Positions 12,265 through 23,338 of a DNA stretch of 64,000 bases are shown here, one piece after another. The notes below the pieces were generated by a model, which had not been told where the DNA came from, searched no databases, and saw nothing but the letters and a program-made list of their open reading frames with translations. Positions within the stretch are counted from its first letter, which is position 1, and every line of letters begins with the position of its first letter. This DNA is from Chroococcidiopsis sp. CCMEE 29 (GTDB lineage: Bacteria; Cyanobacteriota; Cyanobacteriia; Cyanobacteriales; Chroococcidiopsidaceae), in NCBI RefSeq assembly GCF_023558375.1, contig NZ_CP083761.1, positions 4,605,001-4,669,000 of the forward strand. The letters run 5' to 3'. The position numbers and the translations under genes were made by a program.

Positions 12265-13173
12265 ATGTTGCAGTTGAAGAATAAGATTGCGATCGTGGCT
12301 GGAGGTACACGCGGCGCAGGGCGAGGCATTGCAGTGGAACTGGGGGCAGCAGGGGCAACCGTTTATGTGACTGGACGCACGACCCGCACCCAGCGCTCTG
12401 AATACAATCGCCCTGAAACTATCGAAGAAACCGCAGAATTAGTCACTCAGGCAGGAGGGCAAGGAATCGCGGTTCAAGTCGATCATTTAGACCCAGAACA
12501 AGTACAAACGCTAATTGCTCGCGTTGAGCAGGAGCAAGGTCGTCTGGATGTTCTGGTCAACGATATCGGCGCAGAATACCTAGCGGAGTTTAACAAGCCT
12601 ATCTGGGAGCTTTCTCTGGATCGGGGGCTGCGAATGCTGAGACTAGCGCTCGACACCCACATCATCACCAGTCATTTTGCACTGCCGTTGTTAATTCGGA
12701 ATCCAGGTGGACTGGTAGTCGAAATCACCGATGGCACTGCCGAATACAACGGCACCCACTACCGCCTGTCGTTGTTCTATGACCTGGCTAAAACTTCTGT
12801 GATTCGCATGGCGTGGGCACTAGCGCAAGAGCTTCAGCCTCATCACTGCACCGCTGTTGCGCTCACTCCCGGCTGGTTGCGCTCGGAACTCATGCTGGAT
12901 CATTTTGGGGTCAGTGAAGCAAATTGGCTTGACGCAACGGCAAAGGAACCGCACTTTGTCGTCTCCGAAACACCGCGTTATATCGGGCGTGCCGTCGCCC
13001 ATCTAGCTGGCGATCTGGAGGTGGCTCGCTGGAATGGTCAGTCGCTTTCGAGTGGTCAACTGGCGCAGGTCTATGGCTTTACGGATCTGGATGGCTCTCA
13101 GCCGGATGCGTTCCGCTACTTTTTGGAGGTACACGAGGTCGGTAAACCAGCTGATGTGACTGGATACAGGTAA
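12265..13173 (+). CDS. short-chain dehydrogenase/reductase
   Basis: 302 residues, Rossmann fold. The cofactor loop is AGGTRGAGRG (about 12-21), a variant of TGxxxGxG, followed by VYVTGRTT, whose basic residue suggests NADP(H). The active-site tyrosine and lysine are in YDLAK (about 172-176). The usual NNAG is replaced by VNDIGA, and the usual active-site serine is not obvious (EITDGTAEY), as in a subgroup of atypical SDRs. A good Shine-Dalgarno (CAGGAGGT) precedes the ATG at 12265. It is divergent from the WYL regulator, its likely controller. The substrate is unknown. Confidence 0.85.
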   Translation: MLQLKNKIAIVAGGTRGAGRGIAVELGAAGATVYVTGRTTRTQRSEYNRPETIEETAELVTQAGGQGIAVQVDHLDPEQVQTLIARVEQEQGRLDVLVNDIGAEYLAEFNKPIWELSLDRGLRMLRLALDTHIITSHFALPLLIRNPGGLVVEITDGTAEYNGTHYRLSLFYDLAKTSVIRMAWALAQELQPHHCTAVALTPGWLRSELMLDHFGVSEANWLDATAKEPHFVVSETPRYIGRAVAHLAGDLEVARWNGQSLSSGQLAQVYGFTDLDGSQPDAFRYFLEVHEVGKPADVTGYR

Positions 13174-13264: not shown

Positions 13265-13417
13265 CTACAGCACCACAGGGGCAGCAAATGGATCCACTTT
13301 AAAGGAAAGGTGGATCATTCCCCAACCGACGAAAAACAGGAGCAGCCCTGAAGCGGAAGCGATCGCGATCGTCACAGCAAAGTTAGAGCCAATGTTCAAA
13401 GCAAACGCACTCACAGT
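13265..13417 (-). pseudogene. 3' fragment of a membrane-protein gene cut by a TnpB remnant
   Basis: About 50 codons ending in a stop at 13265-13267 read as a plausible protein C-terminus. There is a hydrophobic span (VTIAIASASGLLLFFVGWGM) followed by HLSFKVDPFAAPVVL. Upstream of about 13417 the frame runs into antisense of a TnpB fragment, so the N-terminal part of the gene is lost. The parent family was not recognised. HIP1-like GCGATCGCGATCG within it shows it is resident cyanobacterial sequence. Confidence 0.5.
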
Positions 13418-13849
13418 TCTAGAAGACTGTTGAGAAGGCTTTCTGGCAAGGAACAAAGGTATCACAAGTGGCTGAATCACAACATATCTAAGCGGATTGT
13501 TCAAGATGCACGACAGTTGAGTGCAACATTGGTTTTTGAGGATTTGACAAATATTAGAGAGTCTCTCAATCAAAAGCCACGCAGCAAAACGGAACGACGT
13601 AGAACAAATAACTGGACGTTTTACCAGTTGCGCTTGTTTGTCGGGTACAAAGCAAATATTGCTGGCGTACCTGTTGTGTTCGTTCCACCTGCCTATACAA
13701 GTCAAACCTGTTCGCGATGTGGACACATCCACCCGGTTATTGGTAAGTCCTATCGCAACGGCAAGTTTTTTAAGTGTGGGCATTGGGGGTTTGAACATGA
13801 TGCAGATATAAATGCAGCTTTAAATATCGCTACTTTGGGGTTGCTGTAA
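13416..13849 (+). pseudogene. tnpB: 5'-truncated TnpB (IS200/IS605 family) remnant
   Basis: About 144 C-terminal residues of a TnpB RNA-guided nuclease. The RuvC-II glutamate is in LVFEDLTNIRE, the zinc finger starts TSQTCSRCGH, and RuvC-III is EHDADINAALNIA. The N-terminal half with RuvC-I is absent and the frame simply starts at the junction with the disrupted membrane-protein gene. It cannot encode an active nuclease. The zinc finger has also lost canonical spacing in its second half (FKCGHWGFEH). Downstream, the element's right-end hairpin survives at 13911-13931. Confidence 0.85.
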
Positions 13850-13910
13850 CTCAGCCCGAAGTTCCGGGGATGTCTTATGGATTAAACCATGCGGCAAATC
13901 TGGGACAAAG

Positions 13911-13931
13911 CTCCGTGGCTTCAGCCCGGAG
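13911..13931 (+). repeat. right-end hairpin of an IS605-type element
   Basis: CTCCG-T-GGCT followed by AGCC-CGGAG forms a nine-pair hairpin with one bulge, 60 bases past the TnpB stop. This is the usual place for the subterminal right-end hairpin and the 3' part of the TnpB guide RNA. It supports a former element ending near 13935. Confidence 0.55.
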
Positions 13932-13982
13932 TTAGTTACGGGTTACGGCTTGTACTTCGAGGCAATTTGCCAAGTGTGAGAA

Positions 13983-14150
13983 TTAGTGAAGCAAAAAGTG
14001 CCTGAATTGCTCGATCGACCAGGCACCAAACAAAATCCCCAGTGCCCCAACGAATCCCATCAAAGGAGGCGCAGGTAACGGCAGTTTTAACCACCCAAAT
14101 AAAACACCCACGATCCAACCTGCTACAAGGGAAAGGATAAAGTCCTTCAT
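13983..14150 (-). CDS. XapX-domain small membrane protein
   Basis: 55 residues from the ATG at 14148-14150. MKDFILSLVAGWIVGVLFGW followed by LKLPLPAPPLMGFVGALGIL is the XapX (DUF1427) signature: two membrane spans around a PAPP motif. The function of the family is unknown. The start overlaps the stop of the FMN-reductase gene by four bases (ATGA), so the two are translationally coupled. An upstream in-frame ATG (14165) would lengthen the protein by five residues but would lie inside the reductase gene. It is last in a minus-strand run of detoxification-like genes. Confidence 0.8.
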   Translation of the reverse strand: MKDFILSLVAGWIVGVLFGWLKLPLPAPPLMGFVGALGILFGAWSIEQFRHFLLH

Positions 14151-14752
14151 GATTGCATGCTCCAACTCATTTCAAAAGGATTTAATTTGACAGTCATCGT
14201 TACGAGTTTGTGACCAAGTTGCAGAATGGCTGCCTGTTGTGATTCATCTTTCAAATTGCCGTTCTCATCAAACGCCTGATGAGCATTGCTAATTGCCTTC
14301 TGATCCGGCAGTACCAGAACACCGATGTTGCCGAGAATAGAACGAACATGCACCAATCCTCGCAAACCTCCCAACCCTCCAGGGGAAGCACTCATCAACA
14401 CAGCAATCTTCTCTTTGAAACACACCAGTGAAGGTTCGCCCGGTTCGGAACGCGATGCCCAATCGATCGCATTTTTCAGCAACGGGGTAATGGAACTGTT
14501 GTACTCCGGGCAAGCAATCAGAAATCCCTGATGCGCTTTCATCAATGCCTTGAGTTTGAGGACATTTTCTGGCAGCCCCTCAGCCGTCTCCAAATCCTCA
14601 TCATAAAGAGGGAGGGCCAGGTTACGGAAGTCTAGATAGGTGACCTCTGCACCTGCGGCTCTGGCTCCTTCGGCAGCAATTTTCACCAGTTTTTTGTTAA
14701 AAGAGTCTTTTCGCGCACTTCCAGCAAAGGCAAGAATTTTGGCAGCAGTCAT
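14147..14752 (-). CDS. NADPH-dependent FMN reductase (NAD(P)H:quinone/azo reductase-like)
   Basis: 201 residues from the ATG at 14750-14752, chosen because GAGGAG sits six bases ahead. ILAFAGSARKDSFNKKLVK is the flavodoxin-like FMN phosphate loop, and the flavin-binding LIACPEYNSSITPLLKNAID is the family signature. GGLGGLRGLVHVR near residue 120 completes the fold. Members reduce flavins, quinones, chromate or azo dyes with NAD(P)H in the cytoplasm. It follows the ABM monooxygenase by 10 bp and is coupled to the XapX gene, so the three form an operon. The physiological electron acceptor is unknown. Confidence 0.88.
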   Translation of the reverse strand: MTAAKILAFAGSARKDSFNKKLVKIAAEGARAAGAEVTYLDFRNLALPLYDEDLETAEGLPENVLKLKALMKAHQGFLIACPEYNSSITPLLKNAIDWASRSEPGEPSLVCFKEKIAVLMSASPGGLGGLRGLVHVRSILGNIGVLVLPDQKAISNAHQAFDENGNLKDESQQAAILQLGHKLVTMTVKLNPFEMSWSMQS

Positions 14753-14762
14753 GAAGTTCTCC

Positions 14763-15107
14763 TCAGCATTCATACATTCTCGACCACTCGCATGACGCGA
14801 AAGGTATCGAGTTCAGAGTCTTGGCACCACAGCGACTAATTAACTCGTCAATAGAGGTCTGGACTTCGTTACGATTAGGCGCGTGAAATGAGTCCTGCCA
14901 GGCTTCTTTTGATTGCCATTGAGCGTAGTTAACAACCCGCTGTCCGTCATCGCTCGCATGAAAACTTGCAGAAACGAACCCAGCATAACTCTTGAAGTGC
15001 TGTTCAACTTGTTCGGCAATCTCATTAATAAATGTGTACTGCTGGGATGGATCAACTTCAAACTCAACCAGCACCGTGAAAAATTGGTTTTCATGAATGG
15101 TCGGCAT
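14763..15107 (-). CDS. antibiotic-biosynthesis-monooxygenase (ABM) fold protein
   Basis: 114 residues from the ATG at 15105-15107, which has AGGGAGGA eight bases ahead. FFTVLVEFEVDPSQQYTFI, then SYAGFVSASFHASDDGQRVV and NYAQWQSKEAWQDSF show the split beta-alpha-beta ABM (dimeric ferredoxin-like) pattern. Members oxidise quinols or aromatic compounds without cofactors, or act as heme-degrading enzymes. No heme ligand is evident. The frame continues open upstream to 15659 through an unrelated frameshifted cupin gene, so the longer frame is an artefact and not a fusion. Confidence 0.8.
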   Translation of the reverse strand: MPTIHENQFFTVLVEFEVDPSQQYTFINEIAEQVEQHFKSYAGFVSASFHASDDGQRVVNYAQWQSKEAWQDSFHAPNRNEVQTSIDELISRCGAKTLNSIPFASCEWSRMYEC

Positions 15108-15171
15108 TTTATTCCTCCCTAGGTGAGCACGCAGACTCAGCCAGCGGAAGTCGGCAACTTCCCGCAGCCCC

Positions 15172-15659
15172 TTAAATGAAGTAGTTGTCGTGACAGAGGC
15201 AGAGTTCCAACCACTCCTCGTCACTGAGCTGACGACCTGCGGCAATCTCGGTGAGTGCTTCGAAGTACGCCTCGCGCGGCGCGCCGGGTGCGAAGAGAAG
15301 CAGCATCGATGCCAACTCGTCGGACTCGTTGTGGAAGGCGTGCACTCCACCCTCGGGAACGTACAAAAAATCCCCTGCCGTCGCGTCGAGCCAACGCTCT
15401 CGGTTGAACAGCCGCACCGTTCCCGACAGTATGAAGAACGATTCGGACAGTGTCTTGTGGAAGCGCGCGCTCGCCCCGGCGTGTGCGGTCGCATGTCCAC
15501 CCTGTACAAGCCGAATTGTCCATTCGTGGACGCTCCGGTAGCCAGATAGTGCATCGCTGTGCCTGAACTGATTGTCAGCTCGGGTTCCTGGTCCGCCGGA
15601 CGATATATCGCACTGATCTCGCCCTTGTCACCTAGATAGCGGGCATCTGGATATGACAT
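15172..15659 (-). pseudogene. cupin-domain protein gene with one frameshift
   Basis: The N-terminal part (from the ATG at 15657-15659: GTAMHYLATGASTNGQFGLY) and the C-terminal part (FHKTLSESFFILSGTVRLFN, then GDFLYVPEGGVHAFHNES) are consecutive halves of one cupin. They are in different frames. The break falls at the CCCC run at 15474-15477. One added base there restores the frame and gives a normal 160-residue protein with cupin histidines in FHKT and GGVHAF. This is either a recent loss or a base-calling error. GC content is clearly higher than in neighbours, which suggests acquisition from a GC-rich donor. Confidence 0.75.
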
Positions 15660-15685
15660 CTGTGACTTCTTTTCGCCTTTCGCGG

Positions 15686-16372
15686 TCAGCGATCCTCACC
15701 TCGTCGCACGCGATCAAGAATCATACCGATGCGACGTTGGGCATCTAACTTGTCAGCCATTGCGTAATAGGATTGCCCGTGAGTTGCGATCCACGGTACG
15801 AGTACATCAAAGTCAAGTTCGCGAAGGAGTTCAAGACTCTTGATGTAAGCGGCACGATCGCTCGATTCAAGCACAGCAGCAACCCACTCGCCCTCATTGA
15901 GGTAAATTGTGTCGCTTGTAAACAGGAAGCGATGCTCTCCGTTGTTCCAGAGAAAGGCAGTCGCTCCGCTAGTATGACCTGGGGTTGGAATTACCTCAAA
16001 GTTGTCGTCGAGCTGGTGGCGCGTGGAGAAGGTTTCGCTCACCTGTGTCTTCTCGGTGACCCACTTGCGCTCGTTCTCGTGGCAGAAGAGGGGCGCATCA
16101 ACTCGATCTGAAACGAACATTGCCTCGTGCCAGTGGTTTAGGTACTGGCGTATGATGCCACCAAGATTCTGAACGATCGGTGTATCAAACTCGAATTTGC
16201 TGACGCTGTAAACGAGCAAATTGCCTTGCATACGCTGTAACAGGAAGGCGCGCATATCGAGTGAGGGGGCAAACGGAAGCGGTTGCGGAGCCGAGGCGTA
16301 TAGTCCAGAGAAAACGGCTTCCATTTGAGTAGGCTCTTTGATGGGTACAATTCCCTTCAGCTTATCGTCCAT
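15686..16372 (-). CDS. metallo-beta-lactamase-fold hydrolase, atypical metal site
   Basis: 228 residues. The late MBL motifs are clear: FEVIPTPGHTSGATAFLW (motif 3 histidine) and FLFTSDTIYL (motif 4 aspartate), with a final WIATHGQSYY. The expected HxHxDH motif is replaced by NHWHEAMF, so two of the usual metal ligands are missing. The protein may bind one metal or have another activity. No signal peptide, so cytoplasmic. It begins a minus-strand run with the cupin, ABM, FMN reductase and XapX genes, 26 bp ahead of the cupin start. An AraC-type gene lies upstream in the same direction and may regulate the run. Confidence 0.75.
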   Translation of the reverse strand: MDDKLKGIVPIKEPTQMEAVFSGLYASAPQPLPFAPSLDMRAFLLQRMQGNLLVYSVSKFEFDTPIVQNLGGIIRQYLNHWHEAMFVSDRVDAPLFCHENERKWVTEKTQVSETFSTRHQLDDNFEVIPTPGHTSGATAFLWNNGEHRFLFTSDTIYLNEGEWVAAVLESSDRAAYIKSLELLRELDFDVLVPWIATHGQSYYAMADKLDAQRRIGMILDRVRRGEDR

Positions 16373-16549
16373 GATTTGAACTTCCTTACTATCCGAGAAC
16401 TATCTTGGGAATGTCGCAGTCTAGTTCAAGGTTCATGTTTCGGAAATAGCTTCTGCGGGTTATCGCTTGTTCTTACTAGACTGACTTCAGTATGTAAAAT
16501 CTTCCGAATCCGTGTCTTGCAAATTCCTGTACTTTTGAGCAGATTCTTA

Positions 16550-17443
16550 TTAACTGTTGAGGAATGCTTTAGGACTACTGCCAGTCAGACGTTTGAAGTG
16601 ATGGCTCAAGTGGCTTTGATGAGTAAATCCCAAAGAATATGAAATCTCTGCAAGACTCAGTTTGCCCTGGAGCAATAACTGTTTGGCACGATCGACCCGA
16701 CACTGAATCACATATTGATGAGGGGATAATCCAGTAGATTGTTTGAACAAGCGAGAGAAATAGCTTGGACTCATGTGCGCGATCGCCGCTAACGTCGCTA
16801 ATGTTATGTCTTGATTGAGATGTTCATGGATGTAATCTATAACCTGTCGCAATATGCGTTTAGGTAAGCCACTAACAGTTGAAGGTAGCGAATTCTTTTG
16901 AACAGAATAATGCCTCAACAGATGCGCCATCAACGCTGTTGTCATGGCATGGACATACAAACGTCCCCCAATCCCACCCGATTCCAGTTCTGCTTTAAGA
17001 GTTAACCCGATGCTATAAATCAGAAGATCAGACGGATTGATGATAGGAAGCAGTTCTACGGAACTGGAATTACTTGATTCAGCAATTTGCTGCACCAGTA
17101 AATCAGGTTCAAATGCCAGCATCATAAACTGATGCTCTGTCTCCCAATGAGCCCAGGTTCGAGCATTGGCAGGTAACACTCGAACCGTTCCAGGACTCAC
17201 TGGATTTAGCTGGTTTTGTCCTTCAAAGATTTCCAGGATGGGTGATTGTAGATTGCGATCGTTGATGATAATGCGATGCTGGGAACACGAATGTTCAACC
17301 ATATCAAACGATGGCTGGCGGTGATATTGCAAGGAGAGTCCACCCCAATCGGTTGAAGTACTGGATAACAGTGGTTCGCGGGGGTAGAGTCTTGAAAGAT
17401 TATTGTTGCCAGCCAGATCAACCCTCAGAGCCTCTGTCGCCAT
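16550..17443 (-). CDS. AraC-family transcriptional regulator
   Basis: 297 residues. The C-terminal 100 residues hold two helix-turn-helix motifs: DITLATLAAIAHMSPSYFSR then FKQSTGLSPHQYV, and LSLAEISYSLGFTHQSHLS then FKRLTGSSPKAFL. The N-terminal 190 residues are a divergent cupin-like sensing half. It shares its organisation and much of its HTH sequence with the AraC gene at 24193, so the two look like paralogues. It lies upstream of the MBL-cupin-ABM-FMN-reductase-XapX run in the same orientation, the likely targets. The ligand is unknown. Confidence 0.88.
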   Translation of the reverse strand: MATEALRVDLAGNNNLSRLYPREPLLSSTSTDWGGLSLQYHRQPSFDMVEHSCSQHRIIINDRNLQSPILEIFEGQNQLNPVSPGTVRVLPANARTWAHWETEHQFMMLAFEPDLLVQQIAESSNSSSVELLPIINPSDLLIYSIGLTLKAELESGGIGGRLYVHAMTTALMAHLLRHYSVQKNSLPSTVSGLPKRILRQVIDYIHEHLNQDITLATLAAIAHMSPSYFSRLFKQSTGLSPHQYVIQCRVDRAKQLLLQGKLSLAEISYSLGFTHQSHLSHHFKRLTGSSPKAFLNS

Positions 17444-17534
17444 AACCCATGCCTCCCCGTTCAGCGAAGCGACGACTGTTTAAAGTAGTTGGAATGACTT
17501 CATTTTAGCTTGACGCTCTGCTCTTGAGTGCGTT

Positions 17535-18410
17535 TTATGCTGGTGGATTTGCAATAACTTGCTTCAGTTTCTCTGGATTCCGCACCATATAAATCGATTG
17601 AATGGAGCCATCTAAAATCTCAAACGTCGCAACACTGTGAATACAGCCATCTATCAGGGTGATAATACCAATTTGTCCATTGATCTCGATCGTGTGAGCG
17701 ACTGCTGTCGACAGCCACTTGCTGTGAATTGCCAGCAGGAAACGAGCTACTTTCATTGCTCCATGCAACGGTTTCAGAGCAGCTGCAACCTGACCACCAC
17801 CATCCGACCAGAAGGTGACATCTTTGGCTAGAAGTGACAACAGACCTTGTAAATTGCCCTGATTAGAGGCTTCCAAGAATTTCGCTGTGATTTGCTCCTG
17901 TTGCTGCCGGGAAACTGGAAAGCGGGGACGTTGAGCGGTGATATGTTGTCGCGATCGCCTAAAAATTTGCCGACAGTTTGCTGAACTTTTTCCGACCATC
18001 TGAGCAATTTCGTCGTAGTCGTAATCAAACACTTCTCGCAGCAGAAATACGGCTCGTTCAATTGGCGATAAGCGCTCCAGTAGGACTAGAAATGCGATCG
18101 AAAGCGAATCAGCTAACTCTACCTGAGCGGCTGGATCATCAGTCTGTTGTGTCACGATCAGTTCCGGTAACCACGGTCCCACGTACTGCTCCCGCTGCAC
18201 TCGAGCAGACCGCAAATGATCAATGCAAAGGCGCGTGATAACCGTTGACAAATAGGTTTTGGCAGATTTCACCGTCGCTTCTGCGGTTTGCTGCCAGCGC
18301 AGGAAAGTTTCTTGCACCATATCTTCGGCATCCGTAACCGTTCCCAACATCCGGTAGGCGATCGCAAACAACAAAGAACGATGCTGGTTAAAGGTTTCGA
18401 GATGGCTCAT
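17535..18410 (-). CDS. ECF41-type sigma factor with SnoaL-like C-terminal extension
   Basis: 291 residues from the ATG at 18408-18410, which overlaps the upstream stop by four bases. Sigma region 2 is FAIAYRMLGTVTDAEDMVQE and region 4 is LSPIERAVFLLREVFDYDYD followed by a helix-turn-helix. The linker has WLPELI, and the C-terminal SnoaL-like domain has WSDGGGQV and RNPEKL. These match the WLPEP, DGGG and NPDKL signatures reported for ECF41 sigma factors, whose extension acts as a built-in anti-sigma. ECF41 genes usually lie beside carboxymuconolactone decarboxylase, oxidoreductase or epimerase genes, as here. It probably transcribes its own operon from the promoter at 19436. Confidence 0.9.
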   Translation of the reverse strand: MSHLETFNQHRSLLFAIAYRMLGTVTDAEDMVQETFLRWQQTAEATVKSAKTYLSTVITRLCIDHLRSARVQREQYVGPWLPELIVTQQTDDPAAQVELADSLSIAFLVLLERLSPIERAVFLLREVFDYDYDEIAQMVGKSSANCRQIFRRSRQHITAQRPRFPVSRQQQEQITAKFLEASNQGNLQGLLSLLAKDVTFWSDGGGQVAAALKPLHGAMKVARFLLAIHSKWLSTAVAHTIEINGQIGIITLIDGCIHSVATFEILDGSIQSIYMVRNPEKLKQVIANPPA

Positions 18411-18817
18411 AAAACCTGCTCTCTCCGCTGTAGTGTGCTCACACCCCATGCACTGATCGCACATCCGATGCCTTCAGTGAGAGATAAAAGAATCGCAGTG
18501 ATGTGAAAAACGATGCCCCAATCAGTCAAGGGAACTTGGGAAATACGATCAGGGCTGAGGACAATGAAATGATGATAGACCCCAAACAGCAGTGCACCCG
18601 CCATTGAACACAGCAAAAGCCAGCTACCCAGTTGTTGCAATGGTGTCCAGAGTAAAATCATCGCAGCAATCGGAGCTACCACAATAATAGAAGCGACAAA
18701 CCAATGTTGGAATGGAGATAAAGGAACGGGAATTTCCCGGTGAGCCAATCCATGCAGGATGACGGCAAGGGCATGAATGATAACAATAATCGTGCCATAA
18801 CGAGCGATTGAACGCAT
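18407..18817 (-). CDS. four-span membrane protein of unknown function
   Basis: 136 residues from the ATG at 18815-18817, preferred because AAGGAAACG lies just ahead. Longer starts (ATG at 18846, GTG at 18898) are possible. Four hydrophobic segments are evident: YGTIIVIIHALAVILHGLAH, WFVASIIVVAPIAAMIL, WLLLCSMAGALLFGVYHH and IVFHITAILLSLTEGIG. Conserved-looking histidines sit in spans 1 and 3. No family was recognised. It lies between the decarboxylase and the ECF41 sigma gene and overlaps the latter by four bases, so the three are co-transcribed. The membrane protein may sense or handle the same stress. Confidence 0.7.
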   Translation of the reverse strand: MRSIARYGTIIVIIHALAVILHGLAHREIPVPLSPFQHWFVASIIVVAPIAAMILLWTPLQQLGSWLLLCSMAGALLFGVYHHFIVLSPDRISQVPLTDWGIVFHITAILLSLTEGIGCAISAWGVSTLQRREQVL

Positions 18818-18903
18818 TTCAACGTTTCCTTGTGAATGTACTGACATGAAAAATTCTCTAGCTTGGGAGAGTAAGAAAAGAGTGATTTGCTCTCCCACAT
18901 CGC

Positions 18904-19395
18904 TTACACAGAAAGGGTTTCAGGAGTTGCTTTTCGCTGCTGCAATGACTGTGGCTGATAGCTGCCAGGAACCATGCGGGTTGTAATGGCAATGCGGTTC
19001 CAACTGTTGATTGTGACGATCGCCATTAACAGATTTGCAATTTCATCCTGAGAAAAATAACGGCTCACTTCTTCGTAAATTTCATCGAAAACTGGATGAG
19101 TCGCAATCAGGGTGACGGCTTCAGTCAGCGCCAAAACTGCCCGTTCTTGTGGTGTAAAAAAGGGTGTTTCTCTCCAGGCATTGAGGGCATAGATCCGTTG
19201 TTCTGTTTCGCCGTTGAGTCGGGCATCTTTAGTGTGCATATCGATGCAAAAGGCACAACCATTGATTTGGGATGCCCGAATTTTAATCAATTCCAGTAGT
19301 GTTGGGTTAATGCCACTGCCTCGAACATACCGTTCCAATTGCAACATCGCTCGGTAGGCAGCGGATTCAACTCCAAGTTCCATTCTGGGTTGCAT
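18904..19395 (-). CDS. carboxymuconolactone decarboxylase / AhpD-like protein
   Basis: 163 residues. The redox motif GCAFCIDMHTKDARL (CxxCxxxH) and preceding LLELIKIRASQI are diagnostic of the CMD/AhpD fold, and ALTEAVTLIATHPVFDEIYE fits the helical bundle. Members with CxxC act as peroxidase-coupled thiol reductases in the cytoplasm. True decarboxylases lack this cysteine pair. It is the first gene of an operon with a membrane protein and the ECF41 sigma factor. CMD-type proteins are the standard partner of ECF41 sigmas. A matching ECF41 promoter lies 41 bp upstream of the ATG. Confidence 0.9.
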   Translation of the reverse strand: MQPRMELGVESAAYRAMLQLERYVRGSGINPTLLELIKIRASQINGCAFCIDMHTKDARLNGETEQRIYALNAWRETPFFTPQERAVLALTEAVTLIATHPVFDEIYEEVSRYFSQDEIANLLMAIVTINSWNRIAITTRMVPGSYQPQSLQQRKATPETLSV

Positions 19396-19435
19396 TTGTG
19401 AATCTCCTGTTCTGTAAATGGGCGTTCACCTATTA

Positions 19436-19462
19436 GACGAAAGAGAACTGCTGGTTGTGACA
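19436..19462 (-). promoter_or_regulatory. ECF41-type promoter of the CMD-sigma operon
   Basis: Read on the minus strand, TGTCACA (19456-19462) is followed by exactly 16 bases and then CGTC (19436-19439). This equals the target consensus described for ECF41 sigma factors (TGTCACA, 16 bp, CGTC). The -10 part is 41 bp from the decarboxylase ATG. The ECF41 gene is third in the operon, which implies autoregulation. Confidence 0.75.
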
Positions 19463-19492
19463 GGTAGCAGAGGTGACTGATGTTGGATCACC

Positions 19493-19760
19493 CTATGCAG
19501 CAACTAGCTCAGTGATTTTGGCACGAGCATTGGCGATCAACTCTGCCAACTTTTGCCCGCCGTACTCATCGTTTTCCACATGAACAGTGATATCCGTGAT
19601 GCCCATGAATCCAAAAACGGTGACAAGGTACGGGTCATGGTGGTTCATTTTTTCGTAGCGTCCACCCGGTTGAAAGCCAGAATCTCCACGTGCTTCAATA
19701 TCCTGTGCTTGTGTTTTTGTATAAGGGATAATGTCAAGAACAACATCGGGGCAAACCGTT
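19493..19760 (-). pseudogene. 3' fragment of FMN-dependent NADH-azoreductase gene
   Basis: About 80 C-terminal codons in one frame, from near 19755 to the TAG at 19493-19495. They include GFQPGGRYEKMNHHDPYL, VTVFGFMGITDITVHVEN and DEYGGQKLAELIANARAKIT, which match the end of AzoR-type flavoproteins. The N-terminal two thirds are missing, and an in-frame stop lies just before the IS630 left end. The gene was truncated at or near the IS insertion. The sequence beyond the other IS end belongs to a different gene. Confidence 0.75.
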
Positions 19761-19797
19761 CAAATTCAGCTTTAAAATTGGGTAAGCTACTAGACAT

Positions 19798-20487
19798 CTA
19801 ATCTGCAATTGCTCTATTTCCCTTATTACGGATTCTTCTATTCCAATTAATTACTAATTCTCCCTGATTGAGTAACCTATGCAGGAGTTCTTTAAGTTGC
19901 CCCACGGACTGAAATAGCCGATGTGCAATAAACTCTTTACAGGAATGCCACACTAATTCAATTAAATTGAAGTCCGGGCTATAAGCAGGTAAAAAACACA
20001 AGTGAATGTTTGGTAGTGCTTGCTCTATTTTCTCAACGATATCTTCACGTTTGTGATAGCTGGCATTATCCAAAATTACTAGAACTCTCGGACCTGTCTT
20101 TTCATAAAGCTCAGAGTCATTTCCTTGCTCAATCCATTCTTGTTTAACAAATTCATTCAGTAATTCCAACTGCTCAAAAAAACTCTCTCCCTTGCCTTTG
20201 TCAATAAAATAGCACAAGCGTTTTCGGTCATGATAACGCAGCCCACCCATGACATTTACTCGCCCTCGACTCCTTTGACCTGTAACTTTTCTTCGCCAAC
20301 CTCGGCGTGTCCAGCACTTACGCCGTAGCACTCGTAAACTAAAGCCGGTCTCATCCCAAAACCATACCTGGAAAAGCTCCGGCGCTACCTGCCCTGCTTT
20401 CAGATCGGTCTCTAATTTCTCTCGAAATACCACTCGTTTGGTCGCATCTTGCTTATCCTCTAAGCTGTATTTCGCCCAGATGTACAC
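19798..20487 (-). CDS. IS630 transposase, catalytic DDE part
   Basis: 229 residues reading YIWAKYSLEDKQDATKR and then FWDETGFSLRVLRRKCW (first Asp), VLVILDNASYHKRE (second Asp) and LPAYSPDFNLIELVWHSCK (Glu). This is the complete DDE triad of the IS630/Tc1-mariner superfamily. The enzyme cuts and pastes at TA. No good ribosome site precedes the GTG at the overlap, so translation probably depends on frameshifting from the N-terminal frame. The stop lies 13 bp inside the left inverted repeat. Confidence 0.88.
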   Translation of the reverse strand: MYIWAKYSLEDKQDATKRVVFREKLETDLKAGQVAPELFQVWFWDETGFSLRVLRRKCWTRRGWRRKVTGQRSRGRVNVMGGLRYHDRKRLCYFIDKGKGESFFEQLELLNEFVKQEWIEQGNDSELYEKTGPRVLVILDNASYHKREDIVEKIEQALPNIHLCFLPAYSPDFNLIELVWHSCKEFIAHRLFQSVGQLKELLHRLLNQGELVINWNRRIRNKGNRAIAD

Positions 20488-20908
20488 ATACTTTTTTTTG
20501 CAATATTCGACTAATTTGCTTGCTACTCAGCTTAATCCCGGTCTGTTCTAGCAGATAAGTTGATAATCGCCCAGTTGTCCATCTGCCAAATTCATAACCA
20601 AGTTCACTCGGAGCTTTCTCGACCACTTCTAGGAGCAATTCAATATATTGCTCAGTCGCCTTTCGGTAGTTGCCCTGCTCGCGTTTATCTCGTAAACTAT
20701 CGAGATTCTCGGGGTCTCCATGCACACACCAGTAAGCCACACTACGGTAACTACAACCGATGAAATTAACAATCTCTTGATAAGTTTTGCCATCATTTTG
20801 TAGCAGGAGAATCAGGGCATGTTCTCGCAATCGAGGACGATCGCCTTCTCGCACTACCGCTTGCAGACGTTCTTTCTGTTCTTGATTTAAAAACCCCTTT
20901 GCAGGCAT
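20453..20908 (-). CDS. IS630 transposase, N-terminal HTH part
   Basis: 151 residues carrying the paired helix-turn-helix of IS630 transposases: RLREHALILLLQNDGKTYQE, FIGCSYRSVAYWC, and later GIKLSSKQISRILQ. It binds the terminal inverted repeats. The frame ends shortly after an A8 run (minus strand, complement of 20492-20499). The catalytic half continues in another frame. A one-base loss within the A8 run gives a continuous protein, so transcriptional slippage or +1 frameshifting may make the full enzyme. Otherwise the element is a recent pseudogene. Confidence 0.85.
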   Translation of the reverse strand: MPAKGFLNQEQKERLQAVVREGDRPRLREHALILLLQNDGKTYQEIVNFIGCSYRSVAYWCVHGDPENLDSLRDKREQGNYRKATEQYIELLLEVVEKAPSELGYEFGRWTTGRLSTYLLEQTGIKLSSKQISRILQKKVCVHLGEIQLRG

Positions 20909-21131: not shown

Positions 21132-21635
21132 CTAATTCAATGAGATGGCAATGACGATCGCGATCAGGCTCACCAGGGCAAATCCTGCACGCACCACATG
21201 TGAGTACTCCCATTGGTTCCGCAAATCCGTCCAGTCCAGCGGATGAGCTTCGTTAGACCGATTTGCTCCAAACGAGAAGAAGCCAGCACTAAAGCCACTG
21301 AGGTTTTCACCCTCAAGCCAAAACTGATTCACTGGATGCGTCAAGAGCCAGTACACGGCTTGCATCCCGACCAGTCCGAGTAATGCCACCAGTGTCAGCC
21401 AGAATTGTGCACTTCCCCAAGGTGTAAAGAACAAGAGAATGAGGGTTGCAATTAAGCCACCAAACTCACCAACCCCTCCACCAATCGTAAAGCCTGGATA
21501 ATAGATGGGCTGCATAGCAAAATACGCTTCCTTTGTCAGCCGCATTTTCCCAGGGAACTCAAGCGCATGGGCAAGTGCCATCGCCATCGCCACAGCAATG
21601 AGGATTGCAACTATAATTTGTAGAACATTGAACAT
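21132..21635 (-). CDS. DUF1772-like membrane protein (paralogue 1)
   Basis: 167 residues with four hydrophobic segments. The first contains IAVAMAMALAHALEFPGKMR, and the C-terminal motif is LRNQWEYSHVVRAGFALVSL. The WEYSH motif before the last span is shared with DUF1772 proteins (anthrone-oxygenase-like family). The next gene upstream (21693) shares HALELPAKM and LRSQWEYSH, so the two arose by tandem duplication. The ATG at 21633-21635 has GGAGGG about eight bases ahead. Function is unknown. It lies in a run of three DUF1772-type genes around a MarR regulator. Confidence 0.65.
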   Translation of the reverse strand: MFNVLQIIVAILIAVAMAMALAHALEFPGKMRLTKEAYFAMQPIYYPGFTIGGGVGEFGGLIATLILLFFTPWGSAQFWLTLVALLGLVGMQAVYWLLTHPVNQFWLEGENLSGFSAGFFSFGANRSNEAHPLDWTDLRNQWEYSHVVRAGFALVSLIAIVIAISLN

Positions 21636-21692
21636 TGGTTATCCCTCCTCGCCAACCATTGATGATTGGTATTGGATTCCTTCACATGAAAA

Positions 21693-22214
21693 TCAATCTT
21701 TCAAGACTGCATAGAGCTGTTCAGCGCGATCTCGCAGATACCGTGCAGGTGTTTCAACTAAAACAGAAACTACAAGCGCACTGAATGCGGCTAGATGGCA
21801 GAAAAAACGTGCCAGGTGCGAATATTCCCACTGGCTGCGAAGTTGTTCCCAGTTTGTCGGAATCGATTCTGGTGTAGCACTACGAAAGACAACATTTGCG
21901 GGTTCTGTGAAAGCAAAGAAGATGACTGGAAATGCCAGTAGCATAAACCCGATTGCCACCAGTGTCAGTTGAAAGGCAGGGCGACGTTTACGAACACAAA
22001 TAGCCAAAGCGATCGCGGAAAGTGGTGCAGCCAATTCAATCAATGCGCCAATATTGGGAGGTCCAAATACCACATAGAGGCTGTTTTGAATTGCAATATA
22101 TTGCGACGCAGAGTATTGCATTTTTGCCGGGAGTTCTAGCGCGTGACAAAATGCCATTCCCGTAACCAGGGCAGACAGAATAATGGTGATGAAACGCCAA
22201 CTTTTCACAAGCAT
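21693..22214 (-). CDS. DUF1772-like membrane protein (paralogue 2)
   Basis: 173 residues from the ATG at 22212-22214, chosen because AGGAGGA lies six bases ahead. A longer frame to 22298 would run through the MarR operator region. Four membrane spans; motifs HALELPAKMQYSASQYIAIQ and LRSQWEYSHLARFFCHLAA parallel paralogue 1. It is divergent from the MarR gene at 22353, and a perfect TGACAA-N4-TTGTCA palindrome lies in the gap, so MarR repression of this gene and its downstream paralogue is likely. No enzymatic residues can be assigned with confidence. Confidence 0.65.
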   Translation of the reverse strand: MLVKSWRFITIILSALVTGMAFCHALELPAKMQYSASQYIAIQNSLYVVFGPPNIGALIELAAPLSAIALAICVRKRRPAFQLTLVAIGFMLLAFPVIFFAFTEPANVVFRSATPESIPTNWEQLRSQWEYSHLARFFCHLAAFSALVVSVLVETPARYLRDRAEQLYAVLKD

Positions 22215-22300
22215 CGTGATTCCTCCTAAGAGGCTCTCTGCCAGTTGAATGGCATGGCTTAATTCAGCCATAATTGAAGTATGACAATTAATAATCAAAG

Positions 22301-22316
22301 TGACAATTATTTGTCA
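22301..22316. promoter_or_regulatory. MarR-type operator palindrome
   Basis: TGACAATTATTTGTCA has perfect TGACAA/TTGTCA arms around TTAT. A further TGACAAT half-site lies at 22282-22288 on the same strand. The site is centred in the divergent gap, about 37 bp from the MarR ATG and 87 bp from the DUF1772 ATG. Palindromes of this size and AT-rich centre are typical MarR dimer sites. Confidence 0.6.
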
Positions 22317-22352
22317 ACCAAGAATTATCAACTTTTGTGATGAATAACGCTG

Positions 22353-22817
22353 ATGACAAGACAGGCAGTCAATAGAACTCTTGCAGGACAGGCGATCGAA
22401 GACTTAATCATTGAAATTGTGGCAACCTTTTTTTTACTGCGGGCAGAAGGGATGCGAATAGGAGTCGTTTCACCCTCTGGAGAGGGCTACTGGAGTGTTT
22501 TGCGATTGCTCAAGGTGAACGGTGCACAAACAGTGCCGCAGATTGCCCGATATCGCTATGTTCCCCGGCAAAGTGTTCAAAAACTCGCCAACGAAATGCT
22601 AGCGGATGGCGTAATTGAGTTAGTGAACAATCCAGCCCACAAGCGATCAAAACTCCTGCGCCTCACATCCAAGGGAGAAGCCGTTTTTCAAGAATTGAGC
22701 GATCGCATTGCTGTGCTAACTGAAACCCTGGCAGAACAAGAAGATACAGCCCAGTTGCAAAATGCAGTCGTTGTTATCAAACATTTGCACGAACAACTCA
22801 GAGCAATGTTGGATTAA
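22353..22817 (+). CDS. MarR-family transcriptional regulator
   Basis: 154 residues. The winged helix spans about 45-115: SVLRLLKVNGAQTVPQIARY, the recognition helix PRQSVQKLANEMLADGVIEL, and the wing NPAHKRSKLLRLTSKGEAVF. Flanking helices give the MarR dimer interface. MarR proteins release DNA on binding phenolic or oxidising compounds. It probably represses the divergent DUF1772 pair (22214 leftwards), and perhaps itself, through the palindrome at 22301-22316. It ends 18 bp before the convergent DUF1772 gene at 22835. Confidence 0.87.
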   Translation: MTRQAVNRTLAGQAIEDLIIEIVATFFLLRAEGMRIGVVSPSGEGYWSVLRLLKVNGAQTVPQIARYRYVPRQSVQKLANEMLADGVIELVNNPAHKRSKLLRLTSKGEAVFQELSDRIAVLTETLAEQEDTAQLQNAVVVIKHLHEQLRAMLD

Positions 22818-22834
22818 TAGGTCATATACCATTC

Positions 22835-23338
22835 CTATTGCACTGTTTGATTGCAGAGCGCAATGGTGAGTAATGCTGCTGCCGCAAGTGCCGCTATTGT
22901 CCGAACGTGGTTCCAGATTGTCCAGTTGGTCAGGTATTTCACCCATAAATTTGCGCCTTCAGGACTGTCTGGCTTGACGATCGCCAGTGCATCATTCAGC
23001 GGGACATTGAAGGCGATCGTCACTCCGACAGTGCCAACGAGATAGAGCAGACTACCAACCAGCAAGTAGACCGCACCGCCGAGTTGCTGCCACTTTGACA
23101 GCGAGGCGATCGCCAGAAAGAAGCAAGCCACCCCCGTTCCAAACAGCGCCACCATAAACCATGGATTGATCGCCGTGATATTGATGGATTGCATGGTGGC
23201 AATGCCCTGTGCTGACGGTTGTTGAGCAAGAGCCTTCATCACAAAGGTCGAGAAGGCGAAGAAAACCCCGGCAATCAGCCCGCAGCCGATTGCCGCGAAA
23301 AGCATTAAAGGGAAGCGCAAGTTGTGAACAATTGCCAT
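22835..23338 (-). CDS. DUF1772 / anthrone-oxygenase-family membrane protein
   Basis: 167 residues with four spans and the classical family motifs: AGVFFAFSTFVMKALAQQP near the N-terminus, NVPLNDALA near residue 115 and WTIWNHVRTIAALAAAALL at the end. The family was named after fungal anthrone oxygenases, but bacterial members are uncharacterised. It is more typical than the two paralogues at 21132 and 21693 and is probably not part of that duplication. It converges with MarR and lies 56 bp from the NmrA-like gene start region on the same strand. Confidence 0.8.
   Translation of the reverse strand: MAIVHNLRFPLMLFAAIGCGLIAGVFFAFSTFVMKALAQQPSAQGIATMQSINITAINPWFMVALFGTGVACFFLAIASLSKWQQLGGAVYLLVGSLLYLVGTVGVTIAFNVPLNDALAIVKPDSPEGANLWVKYLTNWTIWNHVRTIAALAAAALLTIALCNQTVQ

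What the first reader, a model, noticed from the sequence alone, without database searches (positions are those of the whole stretch)
17535..19462. ECF41 sigma operon with an exact ECF41 promoter in front of it
Minus-strand TGTCACA-N16-CGTC lies 41 bp ahead of the carboxymuconolactone-decarboxylase gene. That gene heads a three-gene operon ending in a sigma factor with the ECF41 motifs (WLPELI, DGGG, NPEKL). It is the ECF41 layout found in other phyla, here in a cyanobacterium, with a four-span membrane protein inserted between enzyme and sigma factor. The membrane protein could be a new input or output of the switch.
Basis: partly seen in the sequence, partly recalled or inferred. Interest (0 to 1): 0.6.

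Follow-up and report, generated by a model that had tools for sequence, protein, structure and literature searches.

The report
Cyanobacterial ECF41 operon with membrane partner
A cyanobacterium carries a self-controlling stress switch of a known kind, and the small membrane protein lodged inside it seems to work with the switch's enzymes, because it lives on beside them in many relatives that lack the switch.

Summary
On the minus strand an exact TGTCACA-N16-CGTC (19436-19462) lies 40 nt before a CMD/AhpD-like gene, followed by a four-helix membrane protein (MEM) and an ECF41 sigma factor. Layout and promoter are textbook ECF41 (PMC3426412, which already lists Cyanobacteria); the switch is not new. 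Comparison adds: (1) Of 19 loci read with an ECF41 gene, 18 carry the promoter exactly and one with one mismatch; of 22 epimerase genes in MEM loci without an intact sigma gene, none does exactly. Some of these keep degraded promoters; three MEM loci keep sigma-gene stubs. (2) MEM has no Pfam name. It lies within 1 kb behind a CMD or epimerase gene in 31 of 41 loci (39 cyanobacterial), and 22 of 25 genomes with sigma-less MEM genes show no ECF41. That favours output, not input. (3) In one genome a DoxX-like protein takes MEM's slot. (4) Genome-wide the motif is at background. One other exact copy precedes a rare ICMT/PEMT-like gene on the second contig, whose homologue directly follows the sigma gene in Nostoc sp. 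T09: a candidate second target, unproven. No expression data exist.

The parts
19436..19462 (-). ECF41-type promoter TGTCACA-N16-CGTC
   Evidence: exact match, 40 nt before CMD; exact with spacer 16 in 18 of 19 loci read with an adjoining ECF41 gene, one mismatch in the 19th.
18904..19395 (-). CMD/AhpD-like enzyme, 163 aa, CAFCIDMH (CxxCxxxH)
   Evidence: PF02627 78.4 bits; TIGR00778 AhpD core domain 69.3 bits; sequence.
18407..18817 (-). MEM, four-helix membrane protein, 136 aa, no named family
   Evidence: AlphaFold pLDDT 95.1, helices 2-28, 35-55, 61-85, 100-135; 34 aligned homologues, invariant H15, H22, H26, H83; no Pfam match at E 0.01 for the window protein; only weak matches, mostly DUFs, among 35 members.
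17535..18410 (-). ECF41 sigma factor, 291 aa, with C-terminal SnoaL-like extension
   Evidence: TIGR02957 393.4 bits; sigma-70 r2 and r4_2 above cut-off, SnoaL_2 below cut-off; SigJ chain 5xe7_A matched over 6-282, E 1.2e-47.
16550..17443 (-). AraC-type regulator directly downstream (possible module member)
   Evidence: PF12833 95.8 bits; 72% identical gene 21 nt after the sigma gene in G351.
15686..16372 (-). Metallo-beta-lactamase-fold protein (same downstream block)
   Evidence: PF00753 30.5 bits; 76% homologue in the same order in G351.
14147..14773 (-). NADPH-dependent FMN reductase (same downstream block)
   Evidence: PF03358 141.6 bits; 89% homologue in the same order in G351.

Best explanation
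This is an autoregulated ECF41 module. An unknown ligand or redox cue is sensed by the sigma factor's SnoaL-like C-terminal extension (inferred from studied ECF41 members). The released sigma factor directs RNA polymerase to TGTCACA-N16-CGTC and transcribes CMD, MEM and itself, a positive loop (inferred from promoter conservation and from work in other species). CMD is an AhpD-type thiol enzyme. MEM is its four-helix membrane partner, an output of the switch: the enzyme-MEM pair probably detoxifies peroxides, quinones or similar reactive compounds at the membrane (inferred). By comparison of loci, the enzyme can be CMD or an NAD(P) epimerase-like protein, a DoxX-like protein can take MEM's slot, and the sigma gene can be lost while enzyme and MEM stay (stubs show this for three loci).
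For: Sigma family and architecture. Promoter: exact in 18 of 19 loci read with an adjoining ECF41 gene, one mismatch in the 19th, from Anaerolineae; exact in 0 of 22 epimerase genes of MEM loci without an intact sigma gene, best 10 of 11. Fisher p 1.8e-9 for 12 of 12 against 0 of 22, nominal because the loci are related. Relics: L042 keeps 10 of 11 promoter bases and a 16-residue sigma stub; L044 keeps 27 residues and L058 a degraded stub (32 loci searched, stub E-values 4e-4 to 4e-10); L034, L039 and L048 share a gap that removes the -10 element. MEM lies within 1 kb behind a CMD (6) or epimerase (25) gene in 31 of 41 loci. No ECF41 match at E 1e-15 in 22 of 25 genomes with sigma-less MEM genes. 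DoxX_2 protein in MEM's slot in G351.
Against: No transcription, binding or phenotype data. The MEM and sigma genes overlap by 4 nt, and in the Anaerolineae locus MEM sits directly between promoter and sigma gene, which would also suit a regulator. Ten of 41 MEM loci show no CMD or epimerase gene within 1 kb upstream (at least three of these are partial or at contig ends). Many of the genomes without ECF41 are drafts or MAGs whose completeness is not told, so some absences may be gaps. Most sigma-less loci show no relic, so they may never have had the switch. The SnoaL_2 match is below Pfam's cut-off. The window's WLPEL departs from WLPEP. MEM shows no detectable kinship to DoxX, so a shared slot proves no shared function. 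The substrate is a guess.
Confidence: 0.72

Rival explanations
1. MEM is an input: a membrane sensor or anti-sigma factor that holds or releases the ECF41 sigma factor.
For: Overlapping stop and start codons with the sigma gene; MEM directly behind the promoter and next to the sigma gene in an Anaerolineae genome (L055); open sigma gene behind MEM in 9 of 41 MEM loci.
Against: No ECF41 match in 22 of 25 genomes with sigma-less MEM genes. ECF41 operons without MEM keep the exact promoter (L096, L098, L136-L138, L021, L022). The model is four long helices from residue 2 to 135 with no cytoplasmic domain. ECF41 is described as having a fused regulatory domain and no obvious anti-sigma factor (PMC3426412).
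Confidence: 0.13
2. MEM is a passenger: a membrane gene carried along in enzyme operons with no function tied to enzyme or sigma.
For: No Pfam name; MEM is absent from several ECF41 operons and the enzyme types differ.
Against: Invariant histidines across 35 sequences; repeated place behind either of two unrelated enzymes; kept where the sigma gene is lost or absent.
Confidence: 0.12
3. The promoter match is chance and the operon is transcribed from another promoter.
For: The exact motif occurs elsewhere at background frequency; 14 of 100 window shuffles give at least one match.
Against: Exact with the same spacer in 18 of 19 loci with an ECF41 gene; not exact in any of 22 loci without an intact linked sigma gene; 11 of 30 matches in promoter position against 1 of 27 control matches.
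Confidence: 0.03

Closest known systems
ECF41 sigma factors with CMD targets (Ecf41Bli/ydfG of B. licheniformis, RSP_0606-0607 of R. sphaeroides, RpoE9/SMb20029 of S. meliloti)
   Same: Sigma architecture, CxxC CMD gene upstream, -35 TGTCACA, CGTC -10, 16-base spacer, operon that includes its own sigma gene (PMC3426412, sections and passages read; PMC6180224, passages read).
   Different: Membrane protein gene between enzyme and sigma gene; WLPEL linker; a possible second target. Both papers report the CMD gene or operon as sole target.
SigJ of M. tuberculosis (5xe7)
   Same: Match over residues 6-282, E 1.2e-47, including the C-terminal extension.
   Different: Only sequence was compared; its promoter and gene context were not looked at here.
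DoxX-like membrane proteins
   Same: One takes MEM's slot in G351 (PF13564 31.3 bits, cut-off 26.3).
   Different: No DoxX family among the Pfam matches of 35 MEM sequences; profile comparison negative.

Membership tests
ECF41 sigma factor | Sigma regions 2 and 4 with family-level similarity over the full length | tested here: met
   TIGR02957 393.4 bits, cut-off 323.25; PF04542 and PF08281 above cut-off. That TIGR02957 stands for ECF41 is recalled.
ECF41 sigma factor | C-terminal extension of about 100 aa, SnoaL-like | tested here: met
   About 135 aa follow region 4; match to SigJ 5xe7 up to residue 282; PF12680 19.8 bits, below its cut-off of 27.
ECF41 sigma factor | WLPEP motif in the linker | tested here: inconclusive
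   WLPEL in the window, four of five residues; WLPEP in the 14 others compared.
ECF41 sigma factor | CMD, oxidoreductase or epimerase gene next to it | tested here: met
   CMD gene upstream, one gene (MEM) between.
ECF41 sigma factor | TGTCACA-N16-CGTC before the enzyme gene | tested here: met
   Exact.
ECF41 sigma factor | Activity controlled by the extension, no separate anti-sigma factor | not testable with these tools
   No activity data; MEM as anti-sigma is judged unlikely from its distribution and model.
AhpD-like CMD protein | CMD domain with CxxC | tested here: met
   PF02627 78.4 bits, TIGR00778 69.3 bits; CAFC in the sequence.
DoxX family (for MEM) | Detectable DoxX profile similarity | tested here: not met
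   No DoxX family among the Pfam matches of 35 members at E up to 1; hhalign against the G351 DoxX-like protein probability 0.1. A shared fold is not excluded.
Membrane anti-sigma factor (for MEM) | Cytoplasmic sigma-binding domain | tested here: not met
   Model holds four long helices spanning residues 2 to 135 and no further domain. The criterion is recalled.

The most novel reading that the evidence does not exclude
Enzyme plus MEM is a portable membrane redox unit of cyanobacteria (invariant histidines may hold heme, metal or quinone) for which ECF41 is an optional, repeatedly lost controller. Where the controller is kept it can also reach a second, unlinked target: the ICMT/PEMT-like methyltransferase on the window genome's second contig.
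Probability: 0.4. Interest if true: 0.6.

Novelty: new variant of a known kind. Interest (0 to 1): 0.42.

Why it matters
The inducing signals and physiological role of ECF41 switches are largely unknown (own knowledge). A membrane protein that stays with the enzymes where the switch is gone says where the output probably acts, and the decayed promoters and sigma stubs form a natural knock-out series for testing which bases and genes the switch needs. A second target in trans would widen the published one-operon picture of ECF41 regulons.

Tried and rejected
Motif as a large regulon: rejected. Matches in the window genome: exact N16 3 (reversed control 1), spacer 15-17 5 (control 6), relaxed 10 (control 14). 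Of the 3 exact ones, one lies inside a 367-aa ORF, one is the operon, one precedes the ICMT-like gene. Of the 7 additional relaxed ones, none passes the position rule below.

ICMT-like gene as a second target from position alone: rejected as proof. Fourteen genomes hold 31 exact N16 matches (control 27); 30 had loci and were examined. By one rule (not inside an ORF of 200 aa or more; ATG of a frame of 90 aa or more 20-60 nt downstream) 11 of 30 pass: 10 ECF41 operons and the ICMT-like gene; two further ECF41 operons (L071 with a split CMD gene, L075 under a long opposite frame) fail the rule. So 1 of 18 off-operon matches passes, against 1 of 27 control matches. Support comes only from gene identity: a homologue follows the sigma gene in Nostoc sp. 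T09, and close homologues are rare (1 of 373 sampled phylum genomes at E 1e-50, the window's own). Against it: Phormidium tenue FACHB-886 has ECF41 and an 82% identical gene without the promoter (best 9 of 11), and G012 has a 61% homologue but no ECF41 match.

Fold comparison of MEM: Foldseek gave nothing at E 0.001 or better; VIA-align Z up to 12.1 against various unrelated helical proteins, within what helical bundles give anyway. No fold family is claimed.

Viral contigs: no MEM relative. tRNA scan: none. Sigma-70 promoter and terminator scan: 2 against 4.9 and 4 against 4.3 in shuffles.

My own slips and dropped rows. In one search the start coordinate for the window was wrong and an upstream ATG misled the L025 row; both were redone. 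The 22 rows include L030 and L031, where the epimerase gene is about 5 kb from MEM, and L027, where only 99 upstream bases exist; L044 (sigma fragment) was scored apart (8 of 11). MEM loci not scored there: L026, L028, L035, L047, L051, L060, L061, L063 (of these L026, L047 and L061 have no match within one mismatch in the whole locus); L055 was scored. In one search, 3 of 27 upstream regions (L040, L043, L058) were dropped because my script found no start codon. Seven of the 41 MEM loci, partial or degraded (L056, L058-L063), were left out of alignment A3. L014 (E 2.4e-4, inside a 676-aa frame) is not counted as a MEM homologue. L033 and L046 are the loci of G269 and G079. One search missed reverse-strand loci and was completed. 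P0001, the MEM query, carries 11 residues before the conserved start.

Full report
What is there. On the minus strand the window holds TGTCACA-N16-CGTC at 19436-19462, then 40 nt to the start codon of a CMD/AhpD-like gene (18904-19395), 86 nt to a four-helix membrane protein gene (18407-18817, called MEM here) and, overlapping it by four bases, a sigma factor gene (17535-18410). The sigma factor scores 393.4 bits with TIGR02957 against a cut-off of 323.25 and matches SigJ chain 5xe7_A over residues 6-282 at E 1.2e-47. CMD keeps CxxC followed by a histidine (CAFCIDMH). A search with the sigma protein finds one match in the genome. Among 15 sigma factors, a DGGG stretch is found in 13 and NPEKL or NPDKL in 12.

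Is it more than chance? In the window alone, only mildly: 0.15 matches expected, and 14 of 100 shuffles had at least one. The strength comes from comparison. I read 19 loci with an adjoining ECF41 gene: the window, L023, L024, L025, L029, L033, L037, L041, L046, L059 (sigma gene interrupted), L091, L096, L098, L136, L137, L138, L021, L022 and L055. Eighteen have the motif exactly with a 16-base spacer; L055 (Anaerolineae) has one mismatch. L136 and L137 come from one genus and look alike, and all cyanobacterial loci are related, so the 19 are not independent; in L098 the motif lies before a gene upstream of the flavodoxin-like one. Of 22 epimerase genes in MEM loci without an intact linked sigma gene, none has the motif exactly within 350 bases; the best is 10 of 11 in L042 (L027 had only 99 bases). 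Two of these 22 (L040, L056) lie in Phormidium tenue FACHB-886, which has an ECF41 operon elsewhere.

Loss leaves traces in some loci. The aligned upstream regions (24 of 27 usable) show that L034, L039 and L048 share a gap that removes the -10 element, while L048 keeps TGTCACA; L045 has a degraded copy. A translated search of 32 loci finds sigma stubs behind MEM: 16 residues in L042, 27 in L044, a degraded one in L058; in L059 the C-terminal part lies beyond an inserted, by eye transposase-like, gene. So in several relatives the switch was lost while the enzyme-MEM pair stayed; for the other sigma-less loci loss is not shown.

What MEM is. A scan of genome contigs with the family alignment gave 41 loci, 39 cyanobacterial by title, one Anaerolineae and one, degraded, Terriglobales. 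From I count a CMD gene (6) or an epimerase gene (25) within 1 kb upstream on the same strand in 31 of 41, and an open sigma gene downstream in 9 of 41 (8 of them with the enzyme gene upstream). In an even sample of the phylum, 8 of 386 genomes match MEM, one of them doubtful, and 6 of 386 have ECF41. Those six are three enzyme-MEM-sigma operons, one epimerase-DoxX-sigma operon and two operons whose first gene is, by eye, an FAD or NAD oxidoreductase; all six carry the exact promoter. Among 25 genomes that hold MEM genes without linked sigma, 22 have no TIGR02957 match at E 1e-15; many are drafts. A protein that is kept beside the enzyme without the sigma factor is more likely a partner of the enzyme than a sensor for the sigma factor. 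The AlphaFold model is confident (pLDDT 95.1); H15, H22, H26 and H83 are invariant in 35 sequences, which invites, but does not show, a cofactor. No named family or fold fits clearly, and no kinship to DoxX was found although a DoxX_2 protein takes the same slot in G351.

Module swapping. A tree of 15 sigma factors is poorly resolved (2 of 12 inner branches well supported). The epimerase-DoxX operon of G351 falls, with weak support (80/86), among the CMD operons near the window; by BLAST its sigma factor is 80% identical to the window's, and those of L023, L024 and L025 83-86%. So the enzyme and membrane slots seem to change under a like sigma factor. Of seven genomes of the window's own family searched, three (G001, G003, G014) have a different ECF41 type (59-62% identical, beside an azoreductase-like gene), and G012 has genes that flank the window's block but no ECF41. 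The window's copy may therefore have come in by transfer (inference).

Regulon. Genome-wide the motif is at background. The only other exact N16 match in a promoter-like place precedes a 227-aa ICMT/PEMT-like gene (PF04191 45 bits, PF04140 34.2 bits) on the second contig by 48 nt. In Nostoc sp. T09 a 59% identical gene starts 21 nt after the sigma gene. Close homologues are rare. Position alone is not significant (1 of 18 against 1 of 27 controls), P. tenue has the gene without the promoter, and G012 has the gene without ECF41. I put this second target at about even odds.

What is known. PMC3426412 (abstract, sections 20, 21 and 25, and passages read) defines ECF41, its promoter, the CMD/oxidoreductase/epimerase context, hypothetical genes between enzyme and sigma gene, Cyanobacteria among 10 phyla, and the single-operon regulon. 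PMC6180224 (passages read) finds one CMD target for RpoE9. PMC8999054 (passages read) reviews the inhibitory SnoaL-like extension. In the open-access library, searches for ECF41 with cyanobacteria (5 papers), ECF41 with DoxX (none) and 'extracytoplasmic function sigma factor' with isoprenylcysteine (2 papers) listed, judged by title and abstract start, none on this arrangement other than PMC3426412. So the switch is ordinary; the MEM family and its fate look new within what I could search.

Noticed in passing
window 13265-20908: The ECF41 block lies between genes (SDR 12265-13173; DUF1772-like 21132-22298; MarR 22353-22817) whose homologues (78-88% identical) lie within about 4 kb in G012, a genome without an ECF41 match; a DDE transposase gene (19798-20487) and a by-eye TnpB-like frame (13430-13849) flank the block, suggesting an inserted island.
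   Followed up: partly
window 15172-15659: A cupin-like gene seems broken by a frame change: start in one frame, cupin part (PF07883 28.5 bits) in another.
   Followed up: partly
window about 19497-19770: An open frame without its start, by eye the C-terminal end of an azoreductase/flavodoxin-like protein, lies just upstream of the promoter and ends near a DDE transposase gene; an enzyme of that look precedes the sigma gene in G001, G003 and G014.
   Followed up: no
L136 and L137 (G003, G014): Two exact ECF41 promoters in one locus, one before an azoreductase-like gene and one before the gene upstream of it.
   Followed up: no
window 14147-17443 and L091 5948-8667: The order AraC, MBL-fold and FMN reductase genes behind the sigma gene is shared with G351, a genome of the same class but another order.
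   Followed up: partly
window 21132-23338: Three small membrane proteins match PF08592 (anthrone oxygenase), one above and two below its cut-off.
   Followed up: no
L055 7954-10018: An Anaerolineae genome has MEM, ECF41 and an NmrA-like gene in a row, with a one-mismatch promoter 29 nt before MEM.
   Followed up: partly
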